From contig NZ_JAOCQF010000001.1 of the NCBI RefSeq assembly GCF_025380365.1, positions 372,001-436,000 on the forward strand: a stretch of 64,000 bases of DNA, in the 5' to 3' direction. The position numbers and the translations under genes are program-made. This DNA comes from Albidovulum sediminis. GTDB taxonomy: Bacteria; Pseudomonadota; Alphaproteobacteria; Rhodobacterales; Rhodobacteraceae. The stretch's first letter is position 1. Every line of letters starts with the position of its first letter. This document shows, one piece after another, positions 6,721 through 25,737 of this stretch. A model generated the notes under the pieces. That model was not told the origin of the DNA, did no database searches, and saw only the letters and a list, made by a program, of their open reading frames with translations.

Positions 6721-7372
6721 AGGCCTTGTCGGCGCTGGCAAGTGCGGCCCAGTCCTCGGCCAGTGGCCGGTAGGTCGCGAATTCGGCCGCGACCGCGGGA
6801 AGGGCGGCGCAGCGGGCGCGATAGGCGGTGACGGTCGCGGGCCAGTCGATCCCGAGGCCGAGGGGGGCAGCCACCGTCTCGATCCAGAAGAGCGTGATCG
6901 GCAGGCCGCAATCGGCGATCGTCAGCGCCGCGCCGGCGTCGGGCGTCGTCTCCAGCATCCGGCCAAGCTGGCCCAGCCGCGTCTGCACCTGGCTCGCGGC
7001 CTCGGCCAGCCCGGTCGTATCGCGCCGTGACGGGCGCACGTGCGGGAAAAGCTTGCGCACCTCGGGGTCGAGCCGGGTGTCGTTGAAGCGCGAGCGTTCG
7101 CGCACCCGCGCGCGGTCCGCCGGATCGCGGGGCAGCGCGGGGGGCTCGGGGAAGCGGTCCTCCAGATACTCCGCGATCGCCTCGCTGTCGGCGATCGTCA
7201 GCCCGTCATGGACAAGCGTCGGCAGGTTGCCCGAGGGCACGATGCGGCGATATTCCTCCGACCCGTAGCCGCCGGGCGGGGGCACCTCGCGGTAATCGAG
7301 GCCCTTGTGGCGCAGAAGGATGCGCGTCTTGGCGCAGTAACTGCTCATCGGAATGGCGTAGAGCGTGATCAT
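6719..7372 (-). CDS. Glutathione S-transferase family protein
   Basis: A 217-residue protein with an N-terminal thioredoxin-like GST domain (residues 1-80) that begins ITLYAIPMSSYCAKTRILL and has the glutathione-binding SEAIAEYLEDRFP motif. A helical C-terminal domain follows. The active residue is probably a Ser or Cys of the SSYC segment. It likely conjugates or reduces small electrophiles in the cytoplasm. I prefer ATG at 7370-7372 over GTG at 7376-7378 because the GAGGGAGG site is six bases before the ATG and abuts the GTG. The gene stands alone between tRNA-Ser and the nucleoside operon. Confidence 0.85.
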   Translation of the reverse strand: MITLYAIPMSSYCAKTRILLRHKGLDYREVPPPGGYGSEEYRRIVPSGNLPTLVHDGLTIADSEAIAEYLEDRFPEPPALPRDPADRARVRERSRFNDTRLDPEVRKLFPHVRPSRRDTTGLAEAASQVQTRLGQLGRMLETTPDAGAALTIADCGLPITLFWIETVAAPLGLGIDWPATVTAYRARCAALPAVAAEFATYRPLAEDWAALASADKA

Positions 7373-7438
7373 CGGCACCCTCCCTCGGTGGACGTCAGGC
7401 GCAGGCTAGCAGGTCGCGGCACCGCCGGCGAGCGGCAT

Positions 7439-12264: not shown

Positions 12265-13292
12265 CAGCCCGCCACGGGCTCGTTGTCGTTGATCTCGACG
12301 GTAAGGCTGCCGTCCTTGATCGCCGCCTCGCGTTCGGCGACCAGCGCCACCGCCGCCTCGGGCACCTTGCCCTCGAACGTGCCAAGGGGGGCGAGCGAGC
12401 AGCCGCCTTCCTTCATCTGCGAATAGACGCCGTAGTTGTCGGCCGTGAAGCTGCCGTCCTGCACCTTCGCCAGCGCGGCGTTGAAGGTCGGCTCGAAGTG
12501 CCAGAGCGCCGAGGCGACGACGGTTTCGGGATAGTCGGCCTGCGTGTCGATGACGTTGCCCACCGAGAACACGCCGCGCTCCTTCGCCGCGTCCGAGACG
12601 CCGAAGCGTTCGGCATACATCACGTCCGCGCCCGCATCGATCATGGCGAATGCGGTTTCCTTGGCCTTCGGGGGATCGAACCACGAGCCGATGAAGCTGA
12701 TCTGGAACTTCGCGTCCGCGCGCGTTTCGCGCACGCCCGCCATGAAGGCGTTCATCAGCCGGTTGACCTCGGGGATGGGGAAGCCGCCGACCATGCCGAT
12801 GTTTCCGCTTTGCGTCATCGCGCCGGCGATGATGCCCGACAGGTAGGAGGCATCCTGGATGTAGTTGTCGAAGACCGCGAGGTTCGGATGGGCCGGGTCG
12901 GGCATGAAGCTCGACCCCATCAGGAAGGCCACCTCGGGATAGTCGCCCACGACCTCGCGCGCCTCGTCCTCGACGCCGAAGATCTCGCCCACGATCAGCT
13001 TGGCGCCGCCCTCGGCATATTCCCGCATGACGCGGGCATAGTCGGTGTTCGCGGTGTTCTCCGAGAAGGTATAGCTGACCGCGCCCGCGTCCTGCTGGGC
13101 CATCGCGGCCTTGTGGATGCGGCTGACCCACTGCTGCTCGACGGGCACGGTGTAGATGCCCGCGACGCTGACCGGATCGGCCGCCAGAAGCCGGGCGGGC
13201 AGGCCGATGAGGCCGGTCGCGGTCAGCGCGCCGGTGGATTGAAGCAGTCTGCGGCGCGACAAGGGCGCCCCGGCCGTCATTCGCTGGATCAT
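12264..13292 (-). CDS. BMP-family substrate-binding protein
   Basis: This 342-residue periplasmic lipoprotein-like binding protein belongs to the PnrA/BMP family, which binds nucleosides and related compounds. The N-terminus contains SRRRLLQSTGALTATG, an Arg-pair plus hydrophobic stretch that suggests Tat export (residues 12-35), with cleavage near LLAAD. The mature part has FSENTANTDYARVMREYAEGG and YIQDASYLSGIIAGAMTQ, both typical of the family. It is the first gene of the operon (binding protein, ATPase, two permeases, deaminase), preceded by a 115-nt intergenic region with a candidate operator. Confidence 0.9.
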   Translation of the reverse strand: MIQRMTAGAPLSRRRLLQSTGALTATGLIGLPARLLAADPVSVAGIYTVPVEQQWVSRIHKAAMAQQDAGAVSYTFSENTANTDYARVMREYAEGGAKLIVGEIFGVEDEAREVVGDYPEVAFLMGSSFMPDPAHPNLAVFDNYIQDASYLSGIIAGAMTQSGNIGMVGGFPIPEVNRLMNAFMAGVRETRADAKFQISFIGSWFDPPKAKETAFAMIDAGADVMYAERFGVSDAAKERGVFSVGNVIDTQADYPETVVASALWHFEPTFNAALAKVQDGSFTADNYGVYSQMKEGGCSLAPLGTFEGKVPEAAVALVAEREAAIKDGSLTVEINDNEPVAG

Positions 13293-13407: not shown

Positions 13408-14916
13408 TCAGTTGGCCTTGCGCCCGCCGGCGTCCAGGAACCAGTCGTCCGGGTAGGGATACCACCACCCCTGCATCCGCGGCTTGTGGTCGATGATGAC
13501 CATCTTCGTGCGGCGGAACGCGTCGAGCCCCTGCCGCCCCAGTTCGCGCCCGAGGCCCGAGGCCTTCCAGCCGCCGAAGGGCAGCGCGTCGTTGTCGATC
13601 AGCGGGTTGTTGACCCAGACCATGCCGGCCTCCAGCCGCTCCGCCGCCTCCATCGCCTCGTCGAGCCGCGTGGTGAAGACGGAGGCGCCAAGACCGAAGG
13701 GGGAATCGTTTGCCCGTTCAATGGCTTCCTCGAAGTCTTTCACGCGGACGACGGCGGCGACGGGGCCGAAGCATTCCGTGCGCAGGATCTCCATCTCGTC
13801 GGTGCAGCCGGTCAGGATCGTCGGTTCATAGAACCAGCCCCGCGGCTGGTCGGGCGGGATGCGCCCGCCGGTCACGACCGTGGCCCCGCGCGCGCGGGCA
13901 TCGTCCACAAGCCGCATGACCTTCGCCCGCGCCCCCTCGCTGACCAGGGGGCCGATCTCGGACCGGGCCAGCCCGTTGCCGATGCGCAGCATCCGGGCGC
14001 GGCGGGCGAACTCCGCCACGAAGGCGTCGTGGACCGCGTCCACCACGTAAAGGCGCTCGGCCGAGGTGCAGACCTGGCCCGAGAGGTGAAAGGCCGCCGT
14101 GACCGCACCCGCCGCGGCAACGTCGAGGGGCGCGCTCTCGCTGATGATCATCGGGTCGCTGCCGCCTGCCTCGATCACCGCGGGCTTCATCGCGCCTGCC
14201 GCCGCGGCGCCGACCGCGCGCCCTGCCGCGACCGAGCCGGTGAAGGCGACCGCATGGGTCAGGGGCGAGGCGATCAGCGCCTCGGCCAGCCCCGCGCCGC
14301 CGGGCAGGCAGGCCACAAGGCCCTCCGGCAAACTGCTGAAGCATTTCATGAATTCGAGCGTGGAGAGGGTCGTCGCCGGGGCCGGCTTGATCACGCAGCC
14401 GTTACCCGCGGCCAGCGACGCCGCGACCGTCCAGCACATCAGGAGGACGGGGAAGTTGAACGGCATGATGTGGACCGACACGCCAAGGGGTTCGTAGCGC
14501 GCATGCTGGAACGACCCGGCCTGCGTGGTGCCCGCGACCTTGCCCGCCTCATCCCGCGCCATCTCGGCGTAGTAGCGGAAGATCGGCGCGCAGTTCGCGA
14601 TTTCTCCGATCGCCTCGGGGTAGGGCTTGCCCATCTCGCGGCTCATCAGGATGGCGGCGGGGCGGTGGTCCGCCGCCTCGATCCGGTTGGCCAGATCGTG
14701 AAGCGCCTTTGCGCGGCTCTTGGCGTCAAGCCGCTTCCACACGCCCTGCGCGGCGTTGACCGCGCGCAGGACCGCCTCCGCCTCCGCCCAGGTCGTCTCG
14801 GCGATGCGTCCGACCTCCTCCAGCGTCGCCGGGTCGACGACCGGCCGGGCGGCGGCGGCAAGCGGCCGGTAACCGGGCGCAAGGTAAAGGGCGGGGGTGG
14901 CGGGATCGAAGGTCAT
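13408..14916 (-). CDS. NAD(P)-dependent aldehyde dehydrogenase
   Basis: This full-length 502-residue aldehyde dehydrogenase has PFNFP at 152-156 (oxyanion Asn154), FTGS at the NAD fold, the general base Glu249 in a slightly unusual IEAGGSDP context and the nucleophile Cys283 in SGQVCTSAERLYV. It is closest in style to the succinate-semialdehyde/lactaldehyde/betaine aldehyde group. In this operon it follows three cupin genes, a glycosyltransferase and a polyamine-type importer, so it would oxidise an aldehyde released from the imported amine or conjugate. It is the last gene of the minus-strand operon; the gap to the preceding cupin is 6 nt. Confidence 0.92.
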   Translation of the reverse strand: MTFDPATPALYLAPGYRPLAAAARPVVDPATLEEVGRIAETTWAEAEAVLRAVNAAQGVWKRLDAKSRAKALHDLANRIEAADHRPAAILMSREMGKPYPEAIGEIANCAPIFRYYAEMARDEAGKVAGTTQAGSFQHARYEPLGVSVHIMPFNFPVLLMCWTVAASLAAGNGCVIKPAPATTLSTLEFMKCFSSLPEGLVACLPGGAGLAEALIASPLTHAVAFTGSVAAGRAVGAAAAGAMKPAVIEAGGSDPMIISESAPLDVAAAGAVTAAFHLSGQVCTSAERLYVVDAVHDAFVAEFARRARMLRIGNGLARSEIGPLVSEGARAKVMRLVDDARARGATVVTGGRIPPDQPRGWFYEPTILTGCTDEMEILRTECFGPVAAVVRVKDFEEAIERANDSPFGLGASVFTTRLDEAMEAAERLEAGMVWVNNPLIDNDALPFGGWKASGLGRELGRQGLDAFRRTKMVIIDHKPRMQGWWYPYPDDWFLDAGGRKAN

Positions 14917-14922
14917 GCGGCC

Positions 14923-15270
14923 TCAGCGGATCATGTAGACTTTCTTGATCGTCTCGTGGACGGTGCAGACGCCTTTCCAGTCCTGCGGGAAGAAGGCGGC
15001 GGTATCCGGCGTGATTTCAATCACTTCGCCGCTGTCGTGAACGTAGGTGCAGCGGCCTTCGAGGAAGTGGCAGAACTCGTCCCGGGTGACGTGGCAGACC
15101 CATTTGCCGGGCGTGCAGACCCAGAGCCCGCATTCGCTCATCCCCTCCGGCCCCTTGTGGATCACCCGGCCCGAGGTGCGGCTTTGCCCCTCCAGCATGG
15201 TCGGGATCACGCCCCAGTCGACAAGGTCGGCCTGCTCCAGCGGCTTGCGCATCAAAGGTGTGGTGGTCAT
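14923..15270 (-). CDS. Small cupin protein 1 (DUF861/ureidoglycine aminohydrolase-like)
   Basis: This 115-residue single-domain cupin has the conserved core DEFCHFLEGRCTYV...GEVIEITPDTAAFFPQDWKGVCTVHETIKKVYMI. The TPGKW and DEFCHF segments form the metal pocket region of the cupin_3 group, which includes EutQ-like and (S)-ureidoglycine aminohydrolase-like proteins. ATG at 15268-15270 is preceded by GGAGAG. It is the third of three neighbouring paralogues, all ending in a short aromatic/basic tail. The reaction is not known. Confidence 0.85.
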   Translation of the reverse strand: MTTTPLMRKPLEQADLVDWGVIPTMLEGQSRTSGRVIHKGPEGMSECGLWVCTPGKWVCHVTRDEFCHFLEGRCTYVHDSGEVIEITPDTAAFFPQDWKGVCTVHETIKKVYMIR

Positions 15271-15277
15271 GGCTCTC

Positions 15278-15619
15278 CTATCGGCTCATGAAGGCCTTGG
15301 TGACGGTTTCGGTGACGATGCAGGTGCCGCTCCAGCCGGCGCGGAAGAAGACCATGCCGCCGGGGTTTATCGGGATCTCCTGTCCGTCCTCAGCGACATA
15401 GGCGCCGCGCCCGGCGACGAAGTAGCAGAACTCGTCGGCGGGGATGGTGACGCGCCGCTTGCCCGGCGTGCAGGACCAGAGACCGCATTCGCTGCTGCCG
15501 TCGGGGTTGGCGTGCATCACCTTGCCCGAGAGGTGGGGCGCGCCCTCGATCACGTTGGCGCTGGGCCCCCAGTCCTCCAGCGTGACGTCGGCCGCGTTCG
15601 GCCAGTTGGGTGTGGTCAT
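15278..15619 (-). CDS. Small cupin protein 2 (DUF861-like)
   Basis: The protein (113 aa) is a paralogue of its two neighbours: DWGPSANVIEGAPHLSGKVMH aligns with the start of cupin 1, and TPGKRRVTIPADEFCYFVAGRGAYV with its core. In this copy the histidine after DEFC is replaced by Tyr (DEFCYF), so the metal site may differ. ATG at 15617-15619 has GGGAGG upstream and overlaps the stop of cupin 3 (ATGA). The three genes are translationally coupled or nearly so. Confidence 0.85.
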   Translation of the reverse strand: MTTPNWPNAADVTLEDWGPSANVIEGAPHLSGKVMHANPDGSSECGLWSCTPGKRRVTIPADEFCYFVAGRGAYVAEDGQEIPINPGGMVFFRAGWSGTCIVTETVTKAFMSR

Positions 15620-15981
15620 GTCTCCGCCTCCCGGTCGGTCAGGTAATAGGTGTTGCGCAGGGTCTCGTGCACCGTGCACTCCCCCGCCCAGCCGGCGGGG
15701 AAAAGGACGGCAGTGCCGGGGGTTATCTCGATCACCTCGCCCGCGACGGAACGGTAGGTCGCCCGCCCCGCGACGAAGTGGCAGAACTCGTCCCGCGGGA
15801 TGGCGAGGCGCCAGCGCCCCGGCGTGCAGACCCAGATGCCGATCTCGGGCCGGTTGCCGGGGCCCTTGTGGACCAGCCGCCCGGAGGAGTGCGAGGTGCC
15901 CGAGATCGCGTCGGGTTGCGCGCCCCAGTCCACGAGGTCGGCGCGGGTCGAGGCGTCGTGAAGGTGCGGGGCGCTGCTCAC
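15616..15981 (-). CDS. Small cupin protein 3 (DUF861-like)
   Basis: A 121-residue cupin with TPGRWRLAIPRDEFCHFVAGRATYRS and GEVIEITPGTAVLFPAGWAGECTVHETLRNTYYL. GTG at 15979-15981 was taken as start: it overlaps the glycosyltransferase stop as GTGA and has GGAGG nine bases upstream. The region upstream in the same frame is antisense-like filler from the glycosyltransferase. It is the first of three adjacent paralogous cupins. Confidence 0.82.
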   Translation of the reverse strand: MSSAPHLHDASTRADLVDWGAQPDAISGTSHSSGRLVHKGPGNRPEIGIWVCTPGRWRLAIPRDEFCHFVAGRATYRSVAGEVIEITPGTAVLFPAGWAGECTVHETLRNTYYLTDREAET

Positions 15982-17255
15982 CTGACCAGCGCCTCCAGCA
16001 GCTTCGCGGCCTTGGCGGGGCCGTCCTGGCCCTGCATATGCGCCGATGTCGCCGCAAGTTTCGCCGCCATCCCCTTGTCGGATATGCAGGTTTCGAGCTT
16101 GGCCAGCAGCTCCGCCTCGGTCCAGTCGTAGCGCGGCATCTTGAAGCCGTGCCCGGTCTCCTGCACCCGCGTGGCGTTGTCGTGGCCGTCCCAGACATAG
16201 GGCATGATGATCGCGGGTTTGCCGAAATAGAGGCATTCGGTGAAGGAGTTGTTGCCGCCGTGGTGGATCGCCACGTCGACCTGCGGGATGACGGAAGGCT
16301 GCGGGAACCAATTCGATACATGAACGTTGCCCGGCAGATCGCGGTATTCGCTGCCATAATCGCCGATGTTGACCAGCGCGCGGAAGCGCGAGTTGCCGAG
16401 TGCCGCGATGATCCGCTTCAGGAGGTCCGTATCCCCGGCACCGAGCGAGCCGAAGGAGACATAGACCAGCGGGCCGTCGTTGTTCTTCGCGAAGGTCGGA
16501 ACCTCATAGGGCGCCTCCTTGCGCACGCAGCCTTCGAGGTACTGGAAGCGCGCGGGGTCGAGCGGGTGCTGGCGGTCGAACTTCACCGGCTCGGGGTAGA
16601 GCAGCAGGTTGAGGAAGGGCGAGGCCTCGAAGAACTGGCCGATCGGATAGGCGTCTTCGCCGCAGGAGGCCAGGAAGGCGTTGAAGTCGTCGTGGATCGG
16701 CTTGATCACCGTGTTGAAGCGGTCGCGGAAGGCCTGGTGGCAGGCGTGGTCCTTTTCGCCGCAGCCCGACAGATGCGGCGGGATCCCCTCATCCTCGATC
16801 TCGTTTTCCGAACACGAAATGACGCGGACCCAGGGCACGCCATGCTGCTTGATCGCGGGAAAGAGGATGACGTTGTCCACCGCGATCACGTCGGGCTTCA
16901 CCTTCGCCAGAACGCCCGGCAGGTCCTTCTGCGCCCATTTCGCGCTGTCGACGATCGCGGTCCAGCAGTCCTTCACGTAGTTGTCGATCTGGTCGTAGGG
17001 CGACTTGCGGAAGTTCGGGATGTGGCCATTGATGAAATCCTCCCAGAACTTCGCCATCTGCTCGGGCGGCATCGGTTCGGAGAGCGCCACGGGATGCGCC
17101 TCGAACCCGTAGCCCTCGTAGACCGGGACGAAGCCGGGGTCGGAGAGGAACACCGCCCGGTGGCCCAGCGCCTCGACCGCCTGGGCGATGCCGACGGAGT
17201 TGAGCGCGGGGCCGAAGGCGGCCTCGGGGAAGAAGGCGAAGGTTTTCTGCGGCAT
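15978..17255 (-). CDS. UGT/MGT-type glycosyltransferase A
   Basis: This 425-residue GT-B enzyme is of the UDP-glucuronosyl/macrolide glycosyltransferase type. The N-terminal acceptor domain begins FAFFPEAAFGPALNSVGIAQA; the C-terminal donor domain has VYVSFGSLGAGD and the signature IHHGGNNSFTECLYFGKPAIIMPYVWDGHDNATR (shown in pieces: HHGGNNSF, WDGHDNA). It would transfer a sugar from an NDP-sugar to a small acceptor in the cytoplasm. ATG at 17253-17255 follows GGGAG. It sits between the ABC ATPase gene (10-nt gap) and the cupins, an odd place for such an enzyme, and has a close paralogue at 22148-23437. Confidence 0.88.
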   Translation of the reverse strand: MPQKTFAFFPEAAFGPALNSVGIAQAVEALGHRAVFLSDPGFVPVYEGYGFEAHPVALSEPMPPEQMAKFWEDFINGHIPNFRKSPYDQIDNYVKDCWTAIVDSAKWAQKDLPGVLAKVKPDVIAVDNVILFPAIKQHGVPWVRVISCSENEIEDEGIPPHLSGCGEKDHACHQAFRDRFNTVIKPIHDDFNAFLASCGEDAYPIGQFFEASPFLNLLLYPEPVKFDRQHPLDPARFQYLEGCVRKEAPYEVPTFAKNNDGPLVYVSFGSLGAGDTDLLKRIIAALGNSRFRALVNIGDYGSEYRDLPGNVHVSNWFPQPSVIPQVDVAIHHGGNNSFTECLYFGKPAIIMPYVWDGHDNATRVQETGHGFKMPRYDWTEAELLAKLETCISDKGMAAKLAATSAHMQGQDGPAKAAKLLEALVR

Positions 17256-17265
17256 CTGGGTCTCC

Positions 17266-18261
17266 CTATTCGGTGAAGGTGCGGGTGTCGGCCTGGGTCC
17301 AGCCGAGCGTGACGGTATCGCCCTCGGCCACCGGGCGGCGGTCGGCGGCCTCGGCGGTCAGGCGGACGACAAGCGGGCGGGGCGAAAGCGGCGTGGCGAC
17401 GTGCAGCATGAGGTCGAGCCCGTGGTAGGCCCGCGCGGTGACGCGGCCTTCGGTGGTGCGATCGGCGGCGTCGGGGAACAGGCGGATGCGCTCAGGGCGG
17501 ATGGCCAGCGTGCGGCCCGCCTCCTCGATGAAGTTCATCACGCCGATGAAGTCGGCGGCATAGCGGCTGGCCGGGGCCTCGTAGACCTCGTGCGGGGTGC
17601 CTACCTGCAAAAGCCGCCCGTCCTTCAGGATGGCGATGCGGTCGGCCATGACCAGCGCCTCTTCCTGGTCGTGGGTGACGACGATGAAGGTGATGCCGAC
17701 CTCGTGCTGGAGGCGTTTCAGTTCCAGCTGCATCGCCGCGCGCAGCTTCTTGTCGAGCGCGCCCAGCGGCTCGTCCAGAAGCAGGAGCCGCGGCCGCTTG
17801 ACCAGCGCGCGGGCCAGCGCCACGCGCTGCCGCTGCCCGCCCGATAGCTGGTCCGGCTTGCGCCCGGCCATGGGGGACAGTTCGGTGATCGCCATGATCT
17901 CGTCCACCCGCGCGGCGATCTCGGCGCGGGGAAGGCGTTCCATTTCAAGCCCGTAGGCGATGTTGCCCGCAACCGTCATATGCGGGAAAAGCGCGTAGGA
18001 CTGGAACATCAGGTTGACCGGACGGCGGTTCGGCGGAACCCGCGCGATGTCGGCACCATCGAGGCGGATCGCCCCTTCCTCGGGCGTCTCGAACCCGGCG
18101 AGCATCCTGAGAAGCGTGGTCTTGCCGGAACCGGACGCGCCCAGAAGGGCGAAGAACTCGTTTTCGCGGATGTCGAGCGACAGCCGGTCCACCGCCGTCA
18201 CCCGGCCGAAGCGCTTGGTCACGCCGTCGATGGAAAGTAGTGTCGTCGCGCTGGAGTTCAT
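17266..18261 (-). CDS. Polyamine-type ABC transporter ATPase (PotA-like)
   Basis: The 331-residue protein has an ATPase domain with Walker A GASGSGKTT, signature LSGGQRQRVALARALV, Walker B LLLLDEPLGALD and a switch histidine in VVTHDQEEAL. A C-terminal TOBE-type beta domain (residues 235-331, LAIRPERIRLFP) follows. It powers import by the two permeases encoded just upstream. ATG at 18259-18261 overlaps the permease stop as ATGA. Confidence 0.92.
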   Translation of the reverse strand: MNSSATTLLSIDGVTKRFGRVTAVDRLSLDIRENEFFALLGASGSGKTTLLRMLAGFETPEEGAIRLDGADIARVPPNRRPVNLMFQSYALFPHMTVAGNIAYGLEMERLPRAEIAARVDEIMAITELSPMAGRKPDQLSGGQRQRVALARALVKRPRLLLLDEPLGALDKKLRAAMQLELKRLQHEVGITFIVVTHDQEEALVMADRIAILKDGRLLQVGTPHEVYEAPASRYAADFIGVMNFIEEAGRTLAIRPERIRLFPDAADRTTEGRVTARAYHGLDLMLHVATPLSPRPLVVRLTAEAADRRPVAEGDTVTLGWTQADTRTFTE

Positions 18262-19052
18262 GGCGCGATCACCCCCCTGTTGAGCCGTTGCGCCAGCGTC
18301 AGGGCGGTGACCGAGACCAGCATGACGAGGGTGGCGAGCGCGTTGATCTCGGGCGTCACGCCGAAGCGGATCATGGCGAAGATCTGCATCGGCAGCGTGG
18401 TCGAGGCGCGGCCGGCGCCGGCGGTGAAGAAGGCGATGATGAATTCGTCGACCGACAGCGTGAAGGCCAGAAGCGCGCCCGCGATGACGGCCGGCAGGAT
18501 CAGCGGCAGCGTCACCCTGCGGAAGGTGGTGAGGGCGCTGGCGCCGAGATCTGCCGAGGCCTCGGTCACCGACCAGTCGAAGGTCTTGAGCCGCGCGCGC
18601 ACCACCGCAGAGACGAAGGCGAGGTTGAATACGACGTGGGAGGCGATGATCGTGTGAAGCCCCATCGGCACGTTCAGGAGCGAGAAGAACGACAGGAGCG
18701 CGATTGCGAGCACGATGTCGGGAATGATCATCGGCGCGAAGACCAGCGCCTCGATCGCGCGGCCCTTGCGGCGGCGGGTTTCGATGCCGAGGGCAAGCAG
18801 GGTGCCGAGGATTGTGGCGATCAGGGTGGAGATCACGCCCACCACCAGCGTGTTGCCCGCCGCCGACAGGATGTCGCGGTTCGACAGCAGCGCGCCATAC
18901 CACTTTGCCGAAAACCCGGTCCAGGCGGTGGGCATGCCGCCGGCGTTGAACGACAGCGCCACCAGGATGCCGATGGGCAGGTAGAGGAAGGCGAGGACGA
19001 AGGCCAGGAGCGTCGCGAGGCCGCGCCGGGTGGCGGGGGACCGTTCAGCCAT
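18258..19052 (-). CDS. Polyamine-type ABC permease (PotC-like)
   Basis: This 264-residue inner-membrane permease has six predicted helices and the EAA loop (EASADLGASALTTFRRVTLPLILPAVIAG) that contacts the ATPase. I chose ATG at 19050-19052 because GGGAGGG is placed correctly for it; a GTG two codons earlier would put the site too close. The gene overlaps the upstream permease by 8 nt and the ATPase by 4 nt. Confidence 0.92.
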   Translation of the reverse strand: MAERSPATRRGLATLLAFVLAFLYLPIGILVALSFNAGGMPTAWTGFSAKWYGALLSNRDILSAAGNTLVVGVISTLIATILGTLLALGIETRRRKGRAIEALVFAPMIIPDIVLAIALLSFFSLLNVPMGLHTIIASHVVFNLAFVSAVVRARLKTFDWSVTEASADLGASALTTFRRVTLPLILPAVIAGALLAFTLSVDEFIIAFFTAGAGRASTTLPMQIFAMIRFGVTPEINALATLVMLVSVTALTLAQRLNRGVIAP

Positions 19053-19911
19053 CCGCACCCTCCCGCCGCTGACCGGCGCCGCGGTCGGCGGCCATCGCCT
19101 GAAGCGTGAGAAGCCCCATCATGATCGCGATCAGCGCCATCGACAGGGCCGCGCCGAAGGGCCAGTCGTTCGCGGTCAGGAACTGCGCGTAGACGAGGTT
19201 GCCGATCATCTGGAACCGCCCGCCGCCCAGAAGGGCCGGGGTGATGAAATTGCCGATGGAGAGGACGAAGACGAAGACCGCGCCCGCCGCGACCCCGTGC
19301 AGCGTCATCGGCAGGACCACGCGGCGGAAGGTGGTGAAGGCCGAGGCACCCAGATCGCGCGAGGCCTCGGCCAGTTCGGGGTTCAGCCGGGCAAGCGGCG
19401 CGTAGCAGGCGAGGATTACGAAGGGCAGGTAGTTGTAGACCAGCCCGGTGATGACCGCCCCCTCGGTGTAGAGGAGCGAGGGTGGCTCCCCCTCATACCC
19501 CATCATCCGCAGGGCTTGCGTGATCAGCCCCTCGCGGTTCAGGAGCACGATCCAGGCGTAGGTGCGGATCAGGTAGTTCGACCAGAACGGCAGCACGGCG
19601 AGGAAGAGGAGAAGCGGCTGGCGGTGGCGCGGCGCCGCGGCGATGGCGTAGGCGGCGGCATAGCCGATGACGACGGCGATCAGGGTGGCGGTGCCGGCGA
19701 TCCGGGCCGAGGTCAGGAAGATGCCCGCATAGAGCGGGTCGAGGAGAAGCGCGAAATTCTCCAGCGTGAACGTGTATTCGATGCCGCCGTAGACGCCGCG
19801 CCGGAAGAAGCCGAGCGCCAGGATCAGTGCGCAGGGAATGACCATGAGCGCGGTCAGCCAGGCCAGCGCCGGGGCCATGAGGGCGGTCGAGCGTGCGTTC
19901 GAAGGGGTCAC
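19045..19911 (-). CDS. Polyamine-type ABC permease (PotB-like)
   Basis: The protein (288 aa from GTG at 19909-19911) has six helices and the EAA loop EASRDLGASAFTTFRRVVLPMTLHG. The open frame extends further upstream into the binding-protein gene, so a downstream start is needed. GTG at 19911 leaves a normal cytoplasmic tail before helix 1, but the ribosome site is weak. The long first periplasmic loop (GVYGGIEYTFTLENFALLLD) is typical of PotB. Confidence 0.85.
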   Translation of the reverse strand: MTPSNARSTALMAPALAWLTALMVIPCALILALGFFRRGVYGGIEYTFTLENFALLLDPLYAGIFLTSARIAGTATLIAVVIGYAAAYAIAAAPRHRQPLLLFLAVLPFWSNYLIRTYAWIVLLNREGLITQALRMMGYEGEPPSLLYTEGAVITGLVYNYLPFVILACYAPLARLNPELAEASRDLGASAFTTFRRVVLPMTLHGVAAGAVFVFVLSIGNFITPALLGGGRFQMIGNLVYAQFLTANDWPFGAALSMALIAIMMGLLTLQAMAADRGAGQRREGADG

Positions 19912-19931
19912 GTGTCGGGTCCGGTGGGGAA

Positions 19932-19953
19932 GGGCGGGCGCGGGGGCCCGCCC
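19932..19953 (-). terminator. Hairpin between binding-protein and permease genes
   Basis: GGGCGGGC at 19932-19939 pairs with GCCCGCCC at 19946-19953 around a 6-nt loop. It sits just after the stop of the binding-protein gene and before the first permease. Such stems commonly protect the upstream mRNA or attenuate read-through so that the binding protein is made in excess. Confidence 0.5.
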
Positions 19954-19960
19954 GCTATCT

Positions 19961-21010
19961 TCAGTTCGCGGCCTTGATGGCGGAGACCGCCTTGGCATAG
20001 GCCCGCGTCGCGTCGCCAACGTCGCGCAGCTGTTCGAGCTTCAGCAGGTCGGCGGGCGTCATGCCCATGTTCGGGAACTGCGCGATCAGGTCGGGCGACA
20101 GCCCCTCCATCGCGGCCTGGTTCGGCACCTTGTAAAGGATGTTCTCGGCCGCCCAGCGGTGGTTGCCGGCATCGAGGATGTAGTTGAGGAACTTGAAGGC
20201 CCCGTCCTTGTTCTTCGACGCCTTCAGCACCACCATCGTGTCCACCCAGAGGTCGGAGCCTTCGGACGGCACCGCGAACTTGATCGCCGCGTTCTCGGCG
20301 ATGCCGTAGTTGCACCAGCCGTCCCAGGCATGGACCAGCGTCGCCTCGCCCGAGACGAGCTTGGAATAGAAGGTGGTGTCGTCGAAGGCGAGCATGGTCT
20401 GCTTCGCGGCGATCAGGTCGGCCTCGACCTCGTCAAGTTTCGCCTGGTCGGTCTCGTTCACCGAATAGCCCTTGGCGAGGAACCCTGCGGCGAGAAGCCA
20501 GCGGTCGGTGCCCAGAAGCGTGACCTTGCCCGCCTGCGCCTCGGCCGGTTGGAGGAGGTCGTTCCAGGACGCGGGCTCGGGCGAGACGAGGTCAGAGCGG
20601 TAGCAAAGCCCCGTGGTGCCCCAGGCATAGGGGACGGAGAAGGCGTTGCCGGGGTCGTGCGGCAGGCTTGCCGCCTCGGGGTAAAGGTTGGCGAGGTTCG
20701 GCACCTTGGCCGGGTCGATCGGCTCCAGCAGGCCGAGGTTGTTCAGCACCTCGGCGAAGGGGGAGGAGACGAAGGCCACGTCGAACCCCTCCCCGCCAGA
20801 GGCGATGATCTTGCCCATGATCTCCTCGTTGGTGGCGTGGACCACCATCTCGGCGGCCTCGCCGGTCTCGGTCGAGAAGTTCGCGACCGCATCGGGGGCC
20901 ATGTAGCCGTCCCAGTTGGAGATCACGAGCTGGGCAAGCGCGGGGGCGGCGGACAGCGAAAACGCGGCGCCGGCAAAAAGCGCGCGCAGCGGAAGGGAGG
21001 TGGTGATCAT
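19961..21010 (-). CDS. Polyamine-type substrate-binding protein (PotD-like)
   Basis: This 349-residue periplasmic binding protein starts with a Sec signal peptide (residues 1-26, cleavage after PALA). The mature protein begins LVISNWDGYMAPDAVANFSTETG, as PotD/PotF relatives do, and contains the VPYAWGTTGLCYRSD segment near the cleft. The substrate may be a polyamine or another cationic or amide compound; the operon context (cupins, aldehyde dehydrogenase) argues for an amine-derived nutrient. It is first in a nine-gene minus-strand operon. Confidence 0.9.
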   Translation of the reverse strand: MITTSLPLRALFAGAAFSLSAAPALAQLVISNWDGYMAPDAVANFSTETGEAAEMVVHATNEEIMGKIIASGGEGFDVAFVSSPFAEVLNNLGLLEPIDPAKVPNLANLYPEAASLPHDPGNAFSVPYAWGTTGLCYRSDLVSPEPASWNDLLQPAEAQAGKVTLLGTDRWLLAAGFLAKGYSVNETDQAKLDEVEADLIAAKQTMLAFDDTTFYSKLVSGEATLVHAWDGWCNYGIAENAAIKFAVPSEGSDLWVDTMVVLKASKNKDGAFKFLNYILDAGNHRWAAENILYKVPNQAAMEGLSPDLIAQFPNMGMTPADLLKLEQLRDVGDATRAYAKAVSAIKAAN

Positions 21011-21093
21011 GGCGGTTCCTCTCTGGCTGGACTTCCGGATTGGTCTTTTTTGCTTATTTCCGCCCGCACAATTTGCGCCGGGCGGCGACTTCC

Positions 21094-21127
21094 TTGACCA
21101 GAGAGTATTATTGCGCGAAAAAATACG
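21094..21127. promoter_or_regulatory. Divergent promoter region with candidate GntR operator
   Basis: TTGACCAGAGAGTA at 21094-21107 repeats the motif found before the nucleoside operon. For the minus-strand transporter operon, TTGACG at 21127-21122 and AATACT 16 nt further downstream form a plausible -35/-10 pair, and the motif overlaps this -10. An operator overlapping a -10 fits repression by the GntR protein encoded next to it. This is inferred from layout only. Confidence 0.5.
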
Positions 21128-21180
21128 TCAACAGAAACCTTGCCGCCTTGGTGCGGTTGCCGCGACGGGGCAGATGCGAC

Positions 21181-22155
21181 ATGGCACGATCCGCCAGCCC
21201 GAACCGCCAGGCCCGCCCCCGGAGCAGCCCCCGGGCCAGCCATCTGGACCTGGCGCAGCGCATTCTCGACCTGGCCCGCGCGCGGGGCATGGGGGCGGGG
21301 GCGCATCTGCCCGAACAGGTGCTGGCGACCGCCTGCAACGTGTCGCGCACGCCCGTGCGGGCGGCGCTCGATCTCTTGGTGGATCAGGGGCTTGCGGAGC
21401 ATGAGTCGTCTTCGGGCTATCGCCTGGCGGCGGGGTTCTCGCCCGCCTCGACGATTTCCGGGCCGCTGCCGGACGCGGCCGAGGCCGACCTTGCGCGGCG
21501 CATCCTGCGCGACCGAGCGGCGCGGCGGCTGGATGAAACGGTGACGGTGGGCGAGTTGATCCGCCGCTATGGCGCGGCACGTTCCGCGGTCGGAAAGGCG
21601 CTGGCGCGGCTGGCGGAAGACGGGCTCGTGACCCGCGCGCCGGGGCAGTCCTGGGTTTTCGCGGCCCTGCCCGACGCCCCCGAATCGCAGGCCGACAGCT
21701 ATGAGTTCCGCCTGATGCTGGAACCTGCGGCGCTGACCGCGCCGGGATTCCGGCTTGACCCCGACCGGGCGGCGGCGCTGCGCCGGGCCATGGTCGCCTT
21801 TCTGGCCGAGCCGGACGACCGGCTTGACCCGCGCGCTTTCCAGACGCTTGACGCCGCGTTTCACGGGCTGATCGCGCGGGGGGCGGCGAACCGCTTCGTG
21901 GCCGACGCGCTGGGCCAGCACCTGCGCCTGCGCGAACTGCCGGGTGCCGTGGTGCGGGCCAATGTCGTGCGGCTGAGGCAGGCGATGCAGGAACACCTCG
22001 GCATCCTCGACCAGATGGAGGCGGGGCGGTTCGACGTCGCGGCCGACCTGCTTTGCGTGCACCTGAGGCTGTCGCGCAGCCAGCGACCGCAGGCGGCCAA
22101 CCGCGGCGCGCCGCCCCTGTTCGGGCTGACATACCGGGTGGGCGGCGATGGCTGA
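21181..22155 (+). CDS. GntR-family regulator with two winged-helix domains and an FCD domain
   Basis: This 324-residue regulator has a first winged helix at about residues 20-80 (LAQRILDLARARG...VSRTPVRAALDLLVDQGLAEHESSSGYRLA) and a second at about 98-160 (LARRILRD...GAARSAVGKALARLAEDGLVTRA). An FCD ligand domain follows (170-290) with metal-type His in AFHGLI, QEHLGIL and VHLRL. ATG at 21181 has GGGG upstream; the open frame extends to 21040 with no domain content. It is divergent from the transporter operon and overlaps the next glycosyltransferase by 8 nt, so it is the likely local regulator. Confidence 0.85.
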   Translation: MARSASPNRQARPRSSPRASHLDLAQRILDLARARGMGAGAHLPEQVLATACNVSRTPVRAALDLLVDQGLAEHESSSGYRLAAGFSPASTISGPLPDAAEADLARRILRDRAARRLDETVTVGELIRRYGAARSAVGKALARLAEDGLVTRAPGQSWVFAALPDAPESQADSYEFRLMLEPAALTAPGFRLDPDRAAALRRAMVAFLAEPDDRLDPRAFQTLDAAFHGLIARGAANRFVADALGQHLRLRELPGAVVRANVVRLRQAMQEHLGILDQMEAGRFDVAADLLCVHLRLSRSQRPQAANRGAPPLFGLTYRVGGDG

Positions 22156-23437
22156 GGCGCCGGTCATCGCCTTCTTCCCCGAGGCGAGCTTCGGCGCAGC
22201 GCTGAACTGCGTCGGCATCGCCCGTGCGGCGCAGGCGCGTGGCGCGCGCCCCGTCTTCATCTGCCATCCGGGCTTCACCGGCATCTTCGCCGACTACGGG
22301 TTTCAGGAATACCACCTGCCCGCGGTGGGCGCGCCGCCCTCTGCGGATTACTGGCAGGACTTCATCCGCCGGCACCTGCCGCATTTCAACCTGACGCCGA
22401 TCGACCAGATCGAGACCTATGTCGCCCCCACCTGGGAGGCGATCGTGGACACCGCCATCGGGGCCGAGGCGGCGCTCGCGGCCCTTCTGGCGCGGCTCCG
22501 GCCGGATGTGGTGGTGCTCGACAACGTGGTGATGTTCCCGGCCATCGCGCGGGCGGGCTGCCCCTGGGTGCGCGTCGTCTCCTGCGCCGAGACCGAGATC
22601 GCCGACGAAGCCGTGCCGCCCTATTGCTCGGGCCTTGCGCGCGACGACCGGGAAGGGCGCGCGCGCTTCCTCGCCCGCTACCTGCGCGCCGTCGCCCCGG
22701 CGCAGGACCGCTACAACCGCTTCCGCGCGGGCGCGGGACTGCCGGCGCTGCCACCGGGGGAGTTCCTGGAGCCGTCGCCGCACCTGAACCTGCTGCTGGC
22801 CCCGTCGATCCTGCGTCACGACCGTGCCCGCCCGCTCGACCCCGCCCGCTTTGCCTTCCTCGAAGGGGCGGTGCGGCGCGAAGGCCCCTACGACCTGCCG
22901 GAGTTCCCGAAGGGCGAGGGGCCGCTGGTCTACGTCGCCTTCGGCAGCCTCGGGGCGATGGATGTCGCGCTGATGGAACGCATGATCGCCGCGTTTGCCC
23001 ATGTGCCCGCGCGGTTCCTTGTCAATGTGGGCGCGTTCCGCGATGCCTACCGCGCGGTGCCCGACAACGTGCACCTGGAGGGCTGGTATCCGCAGCCCTC
23101 GGTCGTGGCGATGGCCGATCTCTTCATCCACCACGGCGGCAACAACAGCTTTTGCGAGGCGCTTTACCACGGCGTGCCGTCGCTGATCCTGCCCTATTGC
23201 TGGGACGGCCACGACAACGCCACGCGGGCCGGGGAGACGGGGACGGGGATGCGTCTCGACCGTGCCCGCTGGACGACCGGGGACCTTGCGGCGGCGATTG
23301 CCGCGCTGGTGTCCGACCAGGCGATGCGCGCGCGTCTGCGCGAGAACGCACGGGCGATGCAGGCCAGCCCCGGCGTCGATCTGGCGGCGGAGCGCATCCT
23401 CGCCCTCGTGCCCGGCCGGGCCAAGGCGGCGGGCTAG
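22148..23437 (+). CDS. UGT/MGT-type glycosyltransferase B
   Basis: A 429-residue paralogue of the enzyme at 15978-17255: the start (IAFFPEASFGAALNCVGIAR), the DQIETYVAPTWEAIVDTAIG region and the donor motif (HHGGNNSFCEALYHGVPSLI, then YCWDGHDNATR) align throughout. Both lack membrane segments and a signal peptide. It is cotranscribed with the GntR gene, whose stop lies within this gene's first codons. A pair of homologous enzymes in opposite arms of the cluster could act in sequence or on two acceptors. It ends in a CTAG shared with the convergent TetR gene. Confidence 0.87.
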   Translation: MAEAPVIAFFPEASFGAALNCVGIARAAQARGARPVFICHPGFTGIFADYGFQEYHLPAVGAPPSADYWQDFIRRHLPHFNLTPIDQIETYVAPTWEAIVDTAIGAEAALAALLARLRPDVVVLDNVVMFPAIARAGCPWVRVVSCAETEIADEAVPPYCSGLARDDREGRARFLARYLRAVAPAQDRYNRFRAGAGLPALPPGEFLEPSPHLNLLLAPSILRHDRARPLDPARFAFLEGAVRREGPYDLPEFPKGEGPLVYVAFGSLGAMDVALMERMIAAFAHVPARFLVNVGAFRDAYRAVPDNVHLEGWYPQPSVVAMADLFIHHGGNNSFCEALYHGVPSLILPYCWDGHDNATRAGETGTGMRLDRARWTTGDLAAAIAALVSDQAMRARLRENARAMQASPGVDLAAERILALVPGRAKAAG

Positions 23438-24048
23438 ATCCGGTCGGCCAGATGCGGCAGCATGAGCCGCAGATGGTCGAGCGCCTGGCCGAGCGCGCGC
23501 GCCCGCGGCATCCGCGCGCCATGGATGTGCATCTGCAGCCAGAGCCCGTCGGTCATCGCGTCGACTGACCGCGCCAGCAGGTCGGGCGCCGGTCCGCCGT
23601 AGAGGGCGACCAAGTCGCGCGCCGCCTCCTCCATCGCGAGCGCGCGTTCCCGTTCGGCGGTTTCGCACAGGTTGCGGCAGATCGGCCGGGCCGCCGTCTC
23701 ACCCCAGAAGGCGAACCAGAGTGCCAGCGTGCGGCGCGAGCAGACCGGGGCGCTGTAGTCGGTGCGGATCAGGCCAAGGACGCGCGCCAAGGGGTCGGAC
23801 CGCGTCAGCGCGGCTTGCCAGAGCCGCCGGTAGTCGGCGTTCTGGCGGCGCAGCGTTTCGGCCAGAAGCCCCTCCTTCGTGCGGAAGTGAAAGACCAGAA
23901 CCCCCTGCGACACCCCGGCCGCCCTGGCGACGAGCGCGAGCGTCGTGCCCGAAATCCCGTGCGCGGCAACGGTGTCGATCACCGCCTCGATGATGCGGGC
24001 CTGCATGCGGCGGCTGGTCGGGGAGAGAGAGGCATCTTCATCAAGCAT
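23434..24048 (-). CDS. TetR-family regulator, BetI-like
   Basis: The protein (204 aa) has an N-terminal TetR helix-turn-helix (residues 15-60, TTLALVARAAGVSQGVLVFHFRTKEGLL) and a C-terminal domain of the BetI type with the LALWFAFWGETAARPICRNLCE segment. BetI relatives sense choline or other quaternary amines. ATG at 24046-24048 leaves a normal N-terminal arm; there is no ribosome site, so the message may be leaderless, and a GTG at 24102 is the alternative. It is divergent from the MttB-like gene, its likely target. Confidence 0.82.
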   Translation of the reverse strand: MLDEDASLSPTSRRMQARIIEAVIDTVAAHGISGTTLALVARAAGVSQGVLVFHFRTKEGLLAETLRRQNADYRRLWQAALTRSDPLARVLGLIRTDYSAPVCSRRTLALWFAFWGETAARPICRNLCETAERERALAMEEAARDLVALYGGPAPDLLARSVDAMTDGLWLQMHIHGARMPRARALGQALDHLRLMLPHLADRI

Positions 24049-24089
24049 AGCAGCATGGTAATGGTGGAAATTCGAAAAACCAAGATTAT

Positions 24090-24125
24090 TGAGCGGGTGC
24101 ACGAAAAAAATTGACTCAACGCTCA
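24090..24125. promoter_or_regulatory. Divergent region between TetR and MttB-like genes
   Basis: TGAGCG at 24090-24095 and CGCTCA at 24120-24125 form an inverted repeat, and inside it TTGAC/TCAA (24111-24119) is a shorter palindrome that also offers a TTGACT -35. The spacing of the outer arms is long for one TetR dimer, so two dimers or only the inner site may apply. No other copy is seen in the window. Confidence 0.35.
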
Positions 24126-24162
24126 GGTATTTCTAGCCTCGCCTGAACCGACAGGAGTCCTC

Positions 24163-25737
24163 ATGCACACCACCGCATCCCCTGAACGCCGCGCCCGGCC
24201 GGGCGGACGTGCCGCGCGTCTTGCCCTTCGGGGCGCGGCGCCCGATCCCGACCGCAAGCCTGTCCGGGCCGGGGTGTCGGGCGGGCGCTACAACCCCCTG
24301 ACGGAGCCGGACGTTCTGGCGATCCACCGCGCCGCACTGGAGATTCTGGCAACCGTCGGCATCGGGCAGGCGACGGCAGAGGTCGTCGCTATCGCCACCG
24401 CGCAGGGGTGCCGCCTCAGTCCGCGCGGGCGGCTCCTGTTCCCCTCCGCGCTGGTCGAAGACCTGCTGACGAAGGCGGCGCGCGAGTACATGATCTGCAG
24501 CCGTGACCCCGCGCATGCCGATCTGCATGTGGGCGGAAGCCGCGTCCACTACGCAACCTCGGGCGAGGCGGTGTCGGTCCTCGACCCCGCGACGCGCCGC
24601 TACCGGCCTTCGACGCTGTGCGATGTCTACGACACCGCGCGGGTGACCGATGCGTTGCCGAATATCCACCAATACGGCCAGATGGTCGTGCCGACCGAGA
24701 TCGAGGATCTGGTCGAGGCCGACATCAACGTGGCCTATGCCGCGCTGGCCGGGACGACGAAGCCGGTCGAGCATGCGGTGAACGCGGTCGGCTCGTTGCC
24801 GGCGCTGATGGAGATTTATGCGACGGTGGCGGGGTCGGAGCGCCGGTTCCGCGACCGGCCCTTCGTCTCGTTCGGGGGCTGCCCGATCGTGTCGCCCTTG
24901 CGCTTCGCGGCCGACAGCCTGGATGTCATGGTCGCGACCGCGCGGCTGGGCCTGGTCAGCGACATCGCCATCGCACCGCAGGCGGGGGCGACGGCGCCCG
25001 CCTATCTGGCCGGCACGCTGGTGCAGGTGGTGGCCGAGGCGCTGGCCTGCCTCGCAGTCGTCAACATGGTCAATCCGGGTTGCCCGATGTCCTTCGCCGC
25101 CTGGCCCTTCACCGTCGACCTGAGGACCGGCGCCTTTGCCGGCGGCTCGGCCGAGGTGGCCGTGCTGATGGCCGCCATCGCGCAGATCGGCCGCTTCTAC
25201 GACGTGCCGACGACGGTTGCGACCTCGATGTCGGATGCGAAGATGCCCGATGCGCAGATGGGCTACGAGAAGGGCATCAGTTCCATCGTCGCGGGGCTGG
25301 CGGGGGCCAACCGGATCATGGAATCGGCGGGCATGATGGCAAGCCTGATGGGTGTGTCCTACGAGGCGCTGGTGATCGACAACGACATGCTGGGCATGGC
25401 GCAGCGCGTGGTGCGCGGGATCGAGGTGACGGAGGAGACGCTGTCGGTCGGGGCGATCCGGGCGGCTGTGCTGGGCGAGGGGCATTTCCTCGGCGCCGCG
25501 GACACGCTGAAAAGCATGGAGACGGAATACCTCTATCCCGCGTTGGCCGACCGCTCCTCGGTTCAGGTCTGGACCGCGGACGGGGCCAGCACGATCGAGG
25601 AGCGCGCCCGCGATGCGGCGGCGGCGCTGCTGGCGGGGCATTTCCCGCAAGCGATCGCCCCGGAGGTCGACGCGCGGCTCCGCGACCGCTTTCCGATCCG
25701 CCTGCCGGAGGATCGGATGCGGCCGGCCGCAAACTGA
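24163..25737 (+). CDS. MttB-family (trimethylamine methyltransferase-like) protein
   Basis: This 524-residue protein belongs to the MttB superfamily of amine methyltransferases, seen in LEILATVGIG near the N-terminus, the barrel segments (GCPIVSPLRFAADSLDVMV, YEKGISSIVAGLAGANRIM) and EAGHFL-like GEGHFLGAADTL. No in-frame amber codon interrupts it, so it is of the non-pyrrolysine kind, whose characterised members demethylate glycine betaine, carnitine or proline betaine with a corrinoid protein. No corrinoid protein or activase lies in the window. ATG at 24163 follows AGGAG. A basic N-terminal extension of about 40 residues precedes the domain. Confidence 0.85.
   Translation: MHTTASPERRARPGGRAARLALRGAAPDPDRKPVRAGVSGGRYNPLTEPDVLAIHRAALEILATVGIGQATAEVVAIATAQGCRLSPRGRLLFPSALVEDLLTKAAREYMICSRDPAHADLHVGGSRVHYATSGEAVSVLDPATRRYRPSTLCDVYDTARVTDALPNIHQYGQMVVPTEIEDLVEADINVAYAALAGTTKPVEHAVNAVGSLPALMEIYATVAGSERRFRDRPFVSFGGCPIVSPLRFAADSLDVMVATARLGLVSDIAIAPQAGATAPAYLAGTLVQVVAEALACLAVVNMVNPGCPMSFAAWPFTVDLRTGAFAGGSAEVAVLMAAIAQIGRFYDVPTTVATSMSDAKMPDAQMGYEKGISSIVAGLAGANRIMESAGMMASLMGVSYEALVIDNDMLGMAQRVVRGIEVTEETLSVGAIRAAVLGEGHFLGAADTLKSMETEYLYPALADRSSVQVWTADGASTIEERARDAAAALLAGHFPQAIAPEVDARLRDRFPIRLPEDRMRPAAN

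What the first reader, a model, noticed from the sequence alone, without database searches (positions are those of the whole stretch)
13408..25737. Cluster joining two UGT-type glycosyltransferases, three cupins, an aldehyde dehydrogenase, a polyamine-type importer and an MttB-like methyltransferase
Seen: nine minus-strand genes with 4- to 10-nt junctions (importer, glycosyltransferase, three cupins, aldehyde dehydrogenase) face a GntR/glycosyltransferase pair, then a BetI-like regulator and an MttB-like gene. Known: PotD importers take up amines, MttB-type enzymes demethylate quaternary amines, UGTs glycosylate small molecules. Inference: an amine or N-heterocycle may be imported, masked with a sugar, demethylated or opened, and the resulting aldehyde oxidised, a glycosylated-intermediate route comparable in logic to the gamma-glutamyl routes for putrescine and methylamine. 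I know of no described pathway with this gene set.
Basis: partly seen in the sequence, partly recalled or inferred. Interest (0 to 1): 0.75.

Follow-up and report, generated by a model that had tools for sequence, protein, structure and literature searches.

The report
Probable sugar-tagging amine-use gene cluster
A block of ten or eleven genes, kept together in the same order in many bacteria, probably imports an amine and breaks it down while temporarily attaching a sugar to it; no description of it was found, and the chemistry is inferred, not tested.

Summary
It occurs in another class of the phylum; haloarchaeal plasmids hold a smaller UGT-cupin-ALDH core. MttB and BetI do not belong (1 of 88). 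Many relatives add amine genes (DAO flavo-oxidase, glutamine-synthetase-like, PuuR-like regulator, trimethylamine-dehydrogenase homologue); some add sugar kinases (AmgK-like, or ROK plus phosphohexomutase). Both UGTs lack the usual catalytic histidine in 208 of 208 rows. The PotD-type binding protein has lost three acidic polyamine-binding residues but keeps an aromatic, Asp-bearing site. Best reading: an imported amine is N-glycosylated, oxidised to an aldehyde and then an acid, and the sugar is recycled. Substrate, sugar, bond, cupin role and sugar release are unknown. No paper on the cluster turned up in the held library.

The parts
13408..14916 (-). ALDH, aldehyde dehydrogenase (BADH/aminobutyraldehyde-dehydrogenase-like)
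   Evidence: Aldedh 470.7 bits; below the cut-offs of the 25 NCBIfam models shown of 43 matched; in 85 of 88 relatives, other 3 cut; motifs SGQVCTS and IEAGGS present
14923..15270 (-). CupC, short Cupin_3 protein
   Evidence: Cupin_3 59 bits; 85 of 88 relatives, other 3 cut; a CupA/CupC-like gene lies next to UGT1 in 12 of 12 distant loci, and a cupin gene directly follows the UGT in 2 of 2 haloarchaeal records
15278..15619 (-). CupB, second Cupin_3 protein, optional
   Evidence: Cupin_3 65.1 bits; 32 of 88 relatives
15616..15981 (-). CupA, third Cupin_3 protein, GTG start
   Evidence: Cupin_3 51.2 bits; 85 of 88 relatives, other 3 cut; in one open frame with CupC in G153 and G103
15978..17255 (-). 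UGT1, GT1-type UDP-glycosyltransferase without the catalytic His (segment FPEAAFGPALN)
   Evidence: UDPGT 48.3 and EryCIII-like_C 60.2 bits; nearest solved chain UGT203A2, 9.6e-52; Pro16, Glu11 and Asp127 each 114/114
17266..18261 (-). PotA-type ATPase
   Evidence: ABC_tran 124.1 bits; over the PotA subfamily cut-off, 362.2 vs 355.6
18258..19058 (-). PotC-type permease
   Evidence: BPD_transp_1 47.3 bits
19045..20019 (-). PotB-type permease (longest ORF; true start probably downstream)
   Evidence: BPD_transp_1 41.5 bits; overlaps PotD by 59 nt as called
19961..21010 (-). PotD-type substrate-binding protein with an altered binding site
   Evidence: SBP_bac_8 77.8 bits; aligned to E. coli PotD; site residues in 99 rows
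21040..22155 (+). GntR/FCD regulator, divergent from PotD
   Evidence: GntR 60.5 bits in two stretches and FCD 51.8 bits; 84 of 88 relatives, other 4 cut
22148..23437 (+). UGT2, paralogue of UGT1 (49%), also without the catalytic His (Ala)
   Evidence: 84 of 88 relatives, other 4 cut; UGT1 and UGT2 rows fall on two sides of one branch, support 99, in a quick tree

Best explanation
A catabolic unit for an imported amine that uses a sugar as a temporary, recycled tag. Steps: (1) the PotABCD-type importer takes up an amine that is not a common polyamine; (2) UGT1 moves a sugar from a UDP-sugar to the amine nitrogen, which as a good nucleophile needs no His base; UGT2, made with the GntR regulator, glycosylates a related compound or the inducer; (3) a flavin amine oxidase (beside the block in many relatives; in this genome it would be encoded elsewhere) oxidises the conjugate to an aldehyde; (4) the UGT-linked cupins act on the glycosylated compound, for example on the glycosylamine bond; (5) ALDH oxidises the aldehyde to an acid; (6) the freed sugar is re-phosphorylated and returned to the UDP-sugar pool. 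Shown: conserved gene set and order, absence of the His, changed PotD site, recurrent amine-oxidising neighbours and, less often, sugar kinases in relatives. Inferred: every reaction, the substrate, the sugar, the cupin role and the order of steps.
For: Block complete in 81 of 88 distinct relatives, the other 7 cut by contig ends. Amine genes within 4 kb of the block: DAO flavo-oxidase 39 of 88, glutamine-synthetase-like 37 of 88, the latter directly after UGT2 in 33. Background: the window genome has 33 near-full-length DAO matches in 4.29 Mb, about 6% expected in 8 kb of flank; other genomes may differ. Family f37 loci: PuuR-like XRE-cupin regulator 4/4, DAO 4/4, flavin amine oxidase 3/4, the fourth contig ending there. 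L166: trimethylamine-dehydrogenase homologue (814.9 bits to 1djn), an ETF/FeS gene and ALDH beside UGT1 and cupin. Sugar-recycling genes recur in two forms: an AmgK-like kinase between CupC and ALDH in 7 of 88 relatives and in 3 of 3 genomes of another class, each of the 6 such genomes searched having a second AmgK elsewhere; a ROK kinase plus a phosphohexomutase next to UGT-cupin-ALDH in 2 of 2 haloarchaeal records. No His in the catalytic segment in 208 of 208 UGT rows; human UGT1A4 has Pro40 in its cavity (passage) and, with UGT2B10, N-glucuronidates amines (passages). PotD: E36 to G 98/98, D168 to T 99/99, E171 to W 99/99; W229, W255, D257 kept 99/99.
Against: No reaction was tested. The window's block has no amine oxidase, glutamine-synthetase-like gene or sugar kinase; 81 of 88 relatives show no kinase there (3 of them cut before that point) and 0 of 12 distant loci show AmgK, ROK or mutase. 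No glycosidase was seen among the proteins scanned. Relatives are not independent: many are Mesorhizobium or Rhizobiaceae. The human parallel is loose: a passage groups UGT1A3 with the N-glucuronidating enzymes and the title of PMC4401096 gives UGT1A4 an O-glucuronidating activity, so His loss is neither needed for nor exclusive to N-transfer. Whether Pro16 sits exactly at the His depends on the alignment: it does against 7lvy and YjiC, but against 6pnt Pro meets Pro and the His column is a gap. Three actinobacterial UGTs (35-36% identical) also read GP; one of the three records is annotated, and it shows no cupin within about 6 kb. The cupins lack the HxH metal motif and resemble only solved structures without a stated function. 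Simple N-glycosylamines are labile in water (recalled). Invariant Glu11 could be a substitute base for O-glycosylation.
Confidence: 0.42

Rival explanations
1. O-glycosylation variant: the unit degrades or masks a hydroxylated amine or amino alcohol, and invariant Glu11 or Glu150/Glu152 replaces the His as base. Same catabolic role, different bond.
For: Glu11, Asp127, Glu150, Glu152 invariant in 208 rows; the solved relatives 7lvy, 6pnt and YjiC show a GH in this segment and are O-type enzymes as far as recalled; UGT1A4, with Pro40, also does O-glucuronidation by the title of PMC4401096.
Against: His is missing in both paralogues in all rows; the human enzymes cited for its loss are best known for nitrogen (link recalled).
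Confidence: 0.22
2. Detoxification: the UGTs inactivate an incoming toxic plant or microbial compound; import, cupins and ALDH clear its breakdown products.
For: UGTs score to macrolide-type MGT models and to mite UGT203A2/UGT202A2 structures; many hosts are rhizobia.
Against: MGT scores are far under the cut-off (108.7 and 112.4 vs 260); UGT1 is in one operon with an importer; amine-oxidising genes and sugar kinases recur in relatives.
Confidence: 0.15
3. Biosynthesis or signalling: the cluster makes a glycosylated amine (storage compound, opine-like nutrient or inducer), UGT2 serving the GntR regulator.
For: GntR-UGT2 pair kept in 84 of 88 relatives, other 4 cut; two UGT clades.
Against: No exporter gene was recognised in the block; ALDH and flavo-oxidases point to breakdown.
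Confidence: 0.12
4. The first reader's full list, with MttB demethylating a quaternary amine inside the unit.
For: BetI overlaps UGT2's end by 4 nt, MttB starts 60 nt beyond BetI, and both recur in L061.
Against: 1 of 88 relatives; 12 MTTB-family matches in the genome.
Confidence: 0.05

Closest known systems
Puu gamma-glutamyl-putrescine pathway (PuuABCD, PuuR)
   Same: Logic (recalled): a carrier group is put on an amine, then flavo-oxidase and ALDH act and the carrier is recycled; GS-like, DAO or PuuR-like genes lie beside the block in many relatives
   Different: No PuuA-, PuuB- or PuuD-like gene in the window's block; UGTs and cupins instead; the carrier would be a sugar
N-methylglutamate pathway for methylamine (recalled)
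   Same: Logic: a primary amine is turned into a secondary one before oxidation
   Different: Its genes were not searched for here
Human UGT1A4/UGT2B10 N-glucuronidation
   Same: Same GT1 superfamily; UGT1A4 has Pro40 in its cavity
   Different: Animal detoxification with glucuronic acid; exact match of Pro40 to Pro16 not tested; UGT1A4 also acts on oxygen (title)
Spider-mite UGT203A2/UGT202A2
   Same: Nearest solved chains by sequence (9.6e-52, 2.4e-31)
   Different: Both show a GH in the catalytic segment (GHVN, GHLN)
PotABCD/PotFGHI polyamine importers
   Same: Same family of ABC importer
   Different: Three acidic polyamine-contact residues replaced
AmgK anomeric sugar kinase
   Same: The kinase found in some relatives' blocks scores 207.3 bits to the model
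   Different: Below the cut-off of 500; a second copy lies elsewhere in 6 of 6 genomes searched; absent from the window's block

Membership tests
GT1 UDP-glycosyltransferase | UDPGT/EryCIII C-terminal domain with HGG donor-site motif | tested here: met
   HGGNN (332-336) in 114/114 UGT1 and in 93/93 UGT2 rows that reach it
GT1 UDP-glycosyltransferase | Catalytic His at the start of the first helix (GH-x-N) | tested here: not met
   position 16 is Pro 114/114 in UGT1, Ala 92 or Ser 2 of 94 in UGT2; ungapped against His in 7lvy and YjiC, a gap against the His of 6pnt
GT1 UDP-glycosyltransferase | Partner Asp of the His | tested here: met
   Asp127 in 208/208; its role as partner is by recall
GT1 UDP-glycosyltransferase | Sugar transfer activity | not testable with these tools
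   needs an enzyme assay
Polyamine importer PotABCD | Family of ATPase and binding protein | tested here: met
   PotA subfamily model over cut-off; PotD/PotF-type chains are the solved relatives
Polyamine importer PotABCD | Acidic residues that hold the polyamine (E36, D168, E171, D257; roles recalled) | tested here: not met
   only D257 kept; other three replaced in 98/98, 99/99, 99/99 rows
Puu gamma-glutamyl pathway | PuuA-like ligase and PuuB-like oxidase in the unit | tested here: not met
   not in the window's block; within 4 kb in 37 and 39 of 88 relatives
Puu gamma-glutamyl pathway | Gamma-glutamyl hydrolase PuuD | tested here: inconclusive
   class I amidotransferase in L167, weak matches (28-30%) in 2 loci
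MttB family | MTTB domain | tested here: met
   346.8 bits; under the TIGR02369 cut-off, 376.6 vs 525
MttB family | Belongs to this gene unit | tested here: not met
   1 of 88 relatives
Metal-dependent cupin | HxH(x)3-4E motif 1 (recalled) | tested here: not met
   Glu65 invariant (246/246) but no conserved HxH before it
AmgK kinase (relatives only) | NCBIfam AmgK equivalog cut-off | tested here: not met
   207.3 vs 500 bits, one member scanned

The most novel reading that the evidence does not exclude
A further carrier route for amines, with sugar in the role that glutamate plays in the gamma-glutamyl and N-methylglutamate routes: a His-less UGT turns a primary amine into an N-glycosylamine, a DAO or trimethylamine-dehydrogenase-type flavoenzyme oxidises this secondary amine to an aldehyde plus a glycosylamine, a Cupin_3 protein (cf. 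the ureidoglycine-aminohydrolase cupins, recalled) frees ammonia and sugar, and an AmgK-like kinase or a ROK kinase plus phosphohexomutase returns the sugar to the UDP-sugar pool.
Probability: 0.23. Interest if true: 0.87.

Novelty: new variant of a known kind. Interest (0 to 1): 0.62.

Why it matters
If true, bacteria and haloarchaea use UDP-sugars to process amines, a catabolic role for GT1 enzymes that I do not know of, and amine use by rhizobia and Rhodobacterales has an undescribed route. It would also give a microbial model for His-less UGT chemistry, known from human drug metabolism. Even if the chemistry differs, a block kept this strictly and without a function that I could find is a clear target.

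Tried and rejected
MttB and BetI as members (1 of 88). The Bmp importer and cytosine-deaminase-like gene downstream of ALDH as members: the whole set only in L061 among the 80 loci; a Bmp binding-protein match lies within 4 kb in 7 of 88, L061 included. Macrolide-resistance-type UGT: scores far under cut-offs. Ordinary polyamine importer: site not kept. Pseudomonas frederiksbergensis plasmid hit: a fragmented UGT2-like gene between type VI secretion genes, without the block. Phage carriage: one 26% match in 50,697 records. Structure models were not obtained, so the place of Glu11, Glu150 and Glu152 in the pocket is untested. Literature: searches returned no paper and search 89 six unrelated titles for the cluster; searches were about His-less human UGTs.
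Full report
Observation. UGT1 and UGT2 are 49% identical; CupB and CupA are 45% and 52% identical to CupC.

Conservation. A UGT1 search of 292 genomes of the order found 13 with a match at 1e-30 (window genome included), each with two UGT matches whose starts lie about 6 kb apart. In the 12 relatives the block is kept (CupB in 2 of 12); MttB, BetI and the Bmp binding protein were not matched in any of the 12, and one, G078, has a cytosine-deaminase-like gene about 11 kb away. A scan of species genomes gave 399 UGT1 relatives, of which the best 80 were returned and examined: Defluviimonas, Frigidibacter, Ruegeria, Shimia, Mesorhizobium, Rhizobium, Shinella and others. Merged, without four genomes met twice and the window itself, 88 distinct relatives remain: 81 complete, and the 7 incomplete ones all end at a contig edge inside the block. 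MttB and BetI occur beside it in 1 of 88 (L061, Defluviimonas sp. WL0002). Class-wide 13 of 385 genomes matched at 1e-40 and phylum-wide 8 of 398 at 1e-60, both counting the window genome and sharing some genomes, so it is widespread but sporadic.

Smaller and different versions. In the 12 distant loci of the class a CupA/CupC-like gene lies next to UGT1 in 12 of 12; an intact ALDH is close in 5, and a sixth has only a short ALDH match; several of these stretches end at contig edges. The haloarchaeal plasmids of Natrialba magadii and Natronorubrum aibiense hold UGT-cupin-ALDH, then a ROK kinase and a phosphohexomutase; the N. magadii kinase scores best to a glucokinase model and the mutase to the archaeal GlmM model, both below cut-offs. 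These were the only two haloarchaeal records in the plasmid collection.

Link to amines. Within 4 kb of the block: DAO flavo-oxidase in 39 of 88, glutamine-synthetase-like in 37, a second ALDH in 27, a saccharopine-dehydrogenase-like gene in 24; the glutamine-synthetase-like gene follows UGT2 within 300 nt in 33. In four loci of family f37 the order is PotDBCA-UGT1-CupA-CupC-ALDH-DAO, with a PuuR-like regulator (4/4) on the other side and a flavin amine oxidase beyond it (3/4, the fourth contig ending there). In L166 the neighbours are ALDH, a close trimethylamine-dehydrogenase homologue and an ETF/iron-sulphur gene; L160 also has such dehydrogenase-type genes. As background, the 4.29-Mb window genome has 33 near-full-length DAO matches, about 6% expected per 8 kb of flank. 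Relatives share ancestry, so counts are not independent events, and the window's own flanks show none of these genes.

Link to a recycled sugar. An AmgK-like kinase sits between CupC and ALDH in 7 of 88 relatives and 3 of 3 genomes of the other class. Six of those genomes were searched and all six have a second, more distant AmgK elsewhere, while the window genome and G106 have one copy, outside the block. With the archaeal ROK and mutase genes this is a repeated pairing of the unit with enzymes that turn free sugar into sugar phosphate. Against it: 81 of 88 relatives show no kinase there (3 of them cut before that point), and 0 of 12 distant loci show AmgK or ROK or mutase.

The UGTs. Solved relatives show a GH in the catalytic segment. 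Position 16 here is Pro in 114 of 114 UGT1 rows and Ala (92) or Ser (2) in 94 of 94 UGT2 rows; Glu11, Asp127, Glu150 and Glu152 are invariant in all 208 (rows include the window and four genomes twice; one P. frederiksbergensis fragment and three actinobacterial rows were set aside, and those three also read GP). The His is missing whichever way one aligns, but Pro stands exactly at its place only against 7lvy and YjiC; against 6pnt Pro meets Pro and the His column is a gap. Human UGT1A4 lists Pro40 among its cavity residues (PMC13293890, passages), and UGT1A4 and UGT2B10 N-glucuronidate amines (PMC8781437 and PMC5075577, passages). That the missing His favours N- over O-transfer is recalled; Kerdpin 2009 was seen only as a title in reference lists. 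Against it: the same passage groups UGT1A3 with them, and PMC4401096, of which I saw the title and a search without matches, is about O-glucuronidation by UGT1A3 and UGT1A4. A quick tree puts rows labelled UGT1 and UGT2, labels given by best match, on two sides of one branch, support 99, with long branches flagged.

The binding protein. Aligned to E. coli PotD and checked in 99 rows of over 55% identity and over 240 aligned residues, the window and four genomes met twice included: E36 is Gly (98/98), D168 Thr (99/99), E171 Trp (99/99), Y85 Pro (95) or Gln (4), T35 mostly Asp (87 of 98); W34 (98/98), W229, W255 and D257 (99/99) are kept. PotD ligand roles are recalled. This fits an amine but not a common polyamine. 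The haloarchaeal PotD-type proteins (25-30% identical) were not in this set.

The cupins. Members of Cupin_3 without a conserved HxH; Trp19, Glu46, Trp50, Cys52 and Glu65 are conserved in at least 242 of 246 rows where present. CupA and CupC form one open frame in two genomes, so they probably act together. No solved relative is named with a function.

Conclusion. The most likely reading is an amine-catabolic unit with a sugar tag. Glycosylation, the bond, the sugar and the substrate remain untested; structure prediction could not be completed. No paper on the cluster was found in the five searches aimed at it; subscription papers and preprints are not held.

Noticed in passing
window 6719-13292 (-): A Bmp/PnrA-type ABC importer, a cytosine-deaminase-family amidohydrolase (724.5 bits, over its NCBIfam cut-off of 438) and a GST lie just downstream of ALDH; importer and deaminase are also there in L061. 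Perhaps a separate nucleobase-type uptake unit.
   Followed up: partly
window 24163-25737 (+): The genome gives 12 MTTB-family matches; this one scores lower than eight of them.
   Followed up: partly
window 21040-22155 (+): The GntR regulator has two scored GntR stretches before its FCD domain, so it may carry two winged helices.
   Followed up: no
G153 and G103 loci (L043, L053): CupA and CupC lie in one open frame, as a double-cupin protein.
   Followed up: no
L160, L166: Two UGT1-type genes, one with an extra residue after FPE and the segment GPVMN, beside trimethylamine-dehydrogenase-type genes.
   Followed up: partly
L167 (Natrialba magadii pNMAG01): The UGT-cupin-ALDH unit lies between histidine-utilisation genes and a Puu-like set (PotABCD-type importer, glutamine-synthetase family, FAD oxidoreductases, amidotransferase, aminotransferase).
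   Followed up: no
L169, around 12000-13000: A fragmented UGT2-like gene between type VI secretion genes in a Pseudomonas frederiksbergensis plasmid.
   Followed up: no
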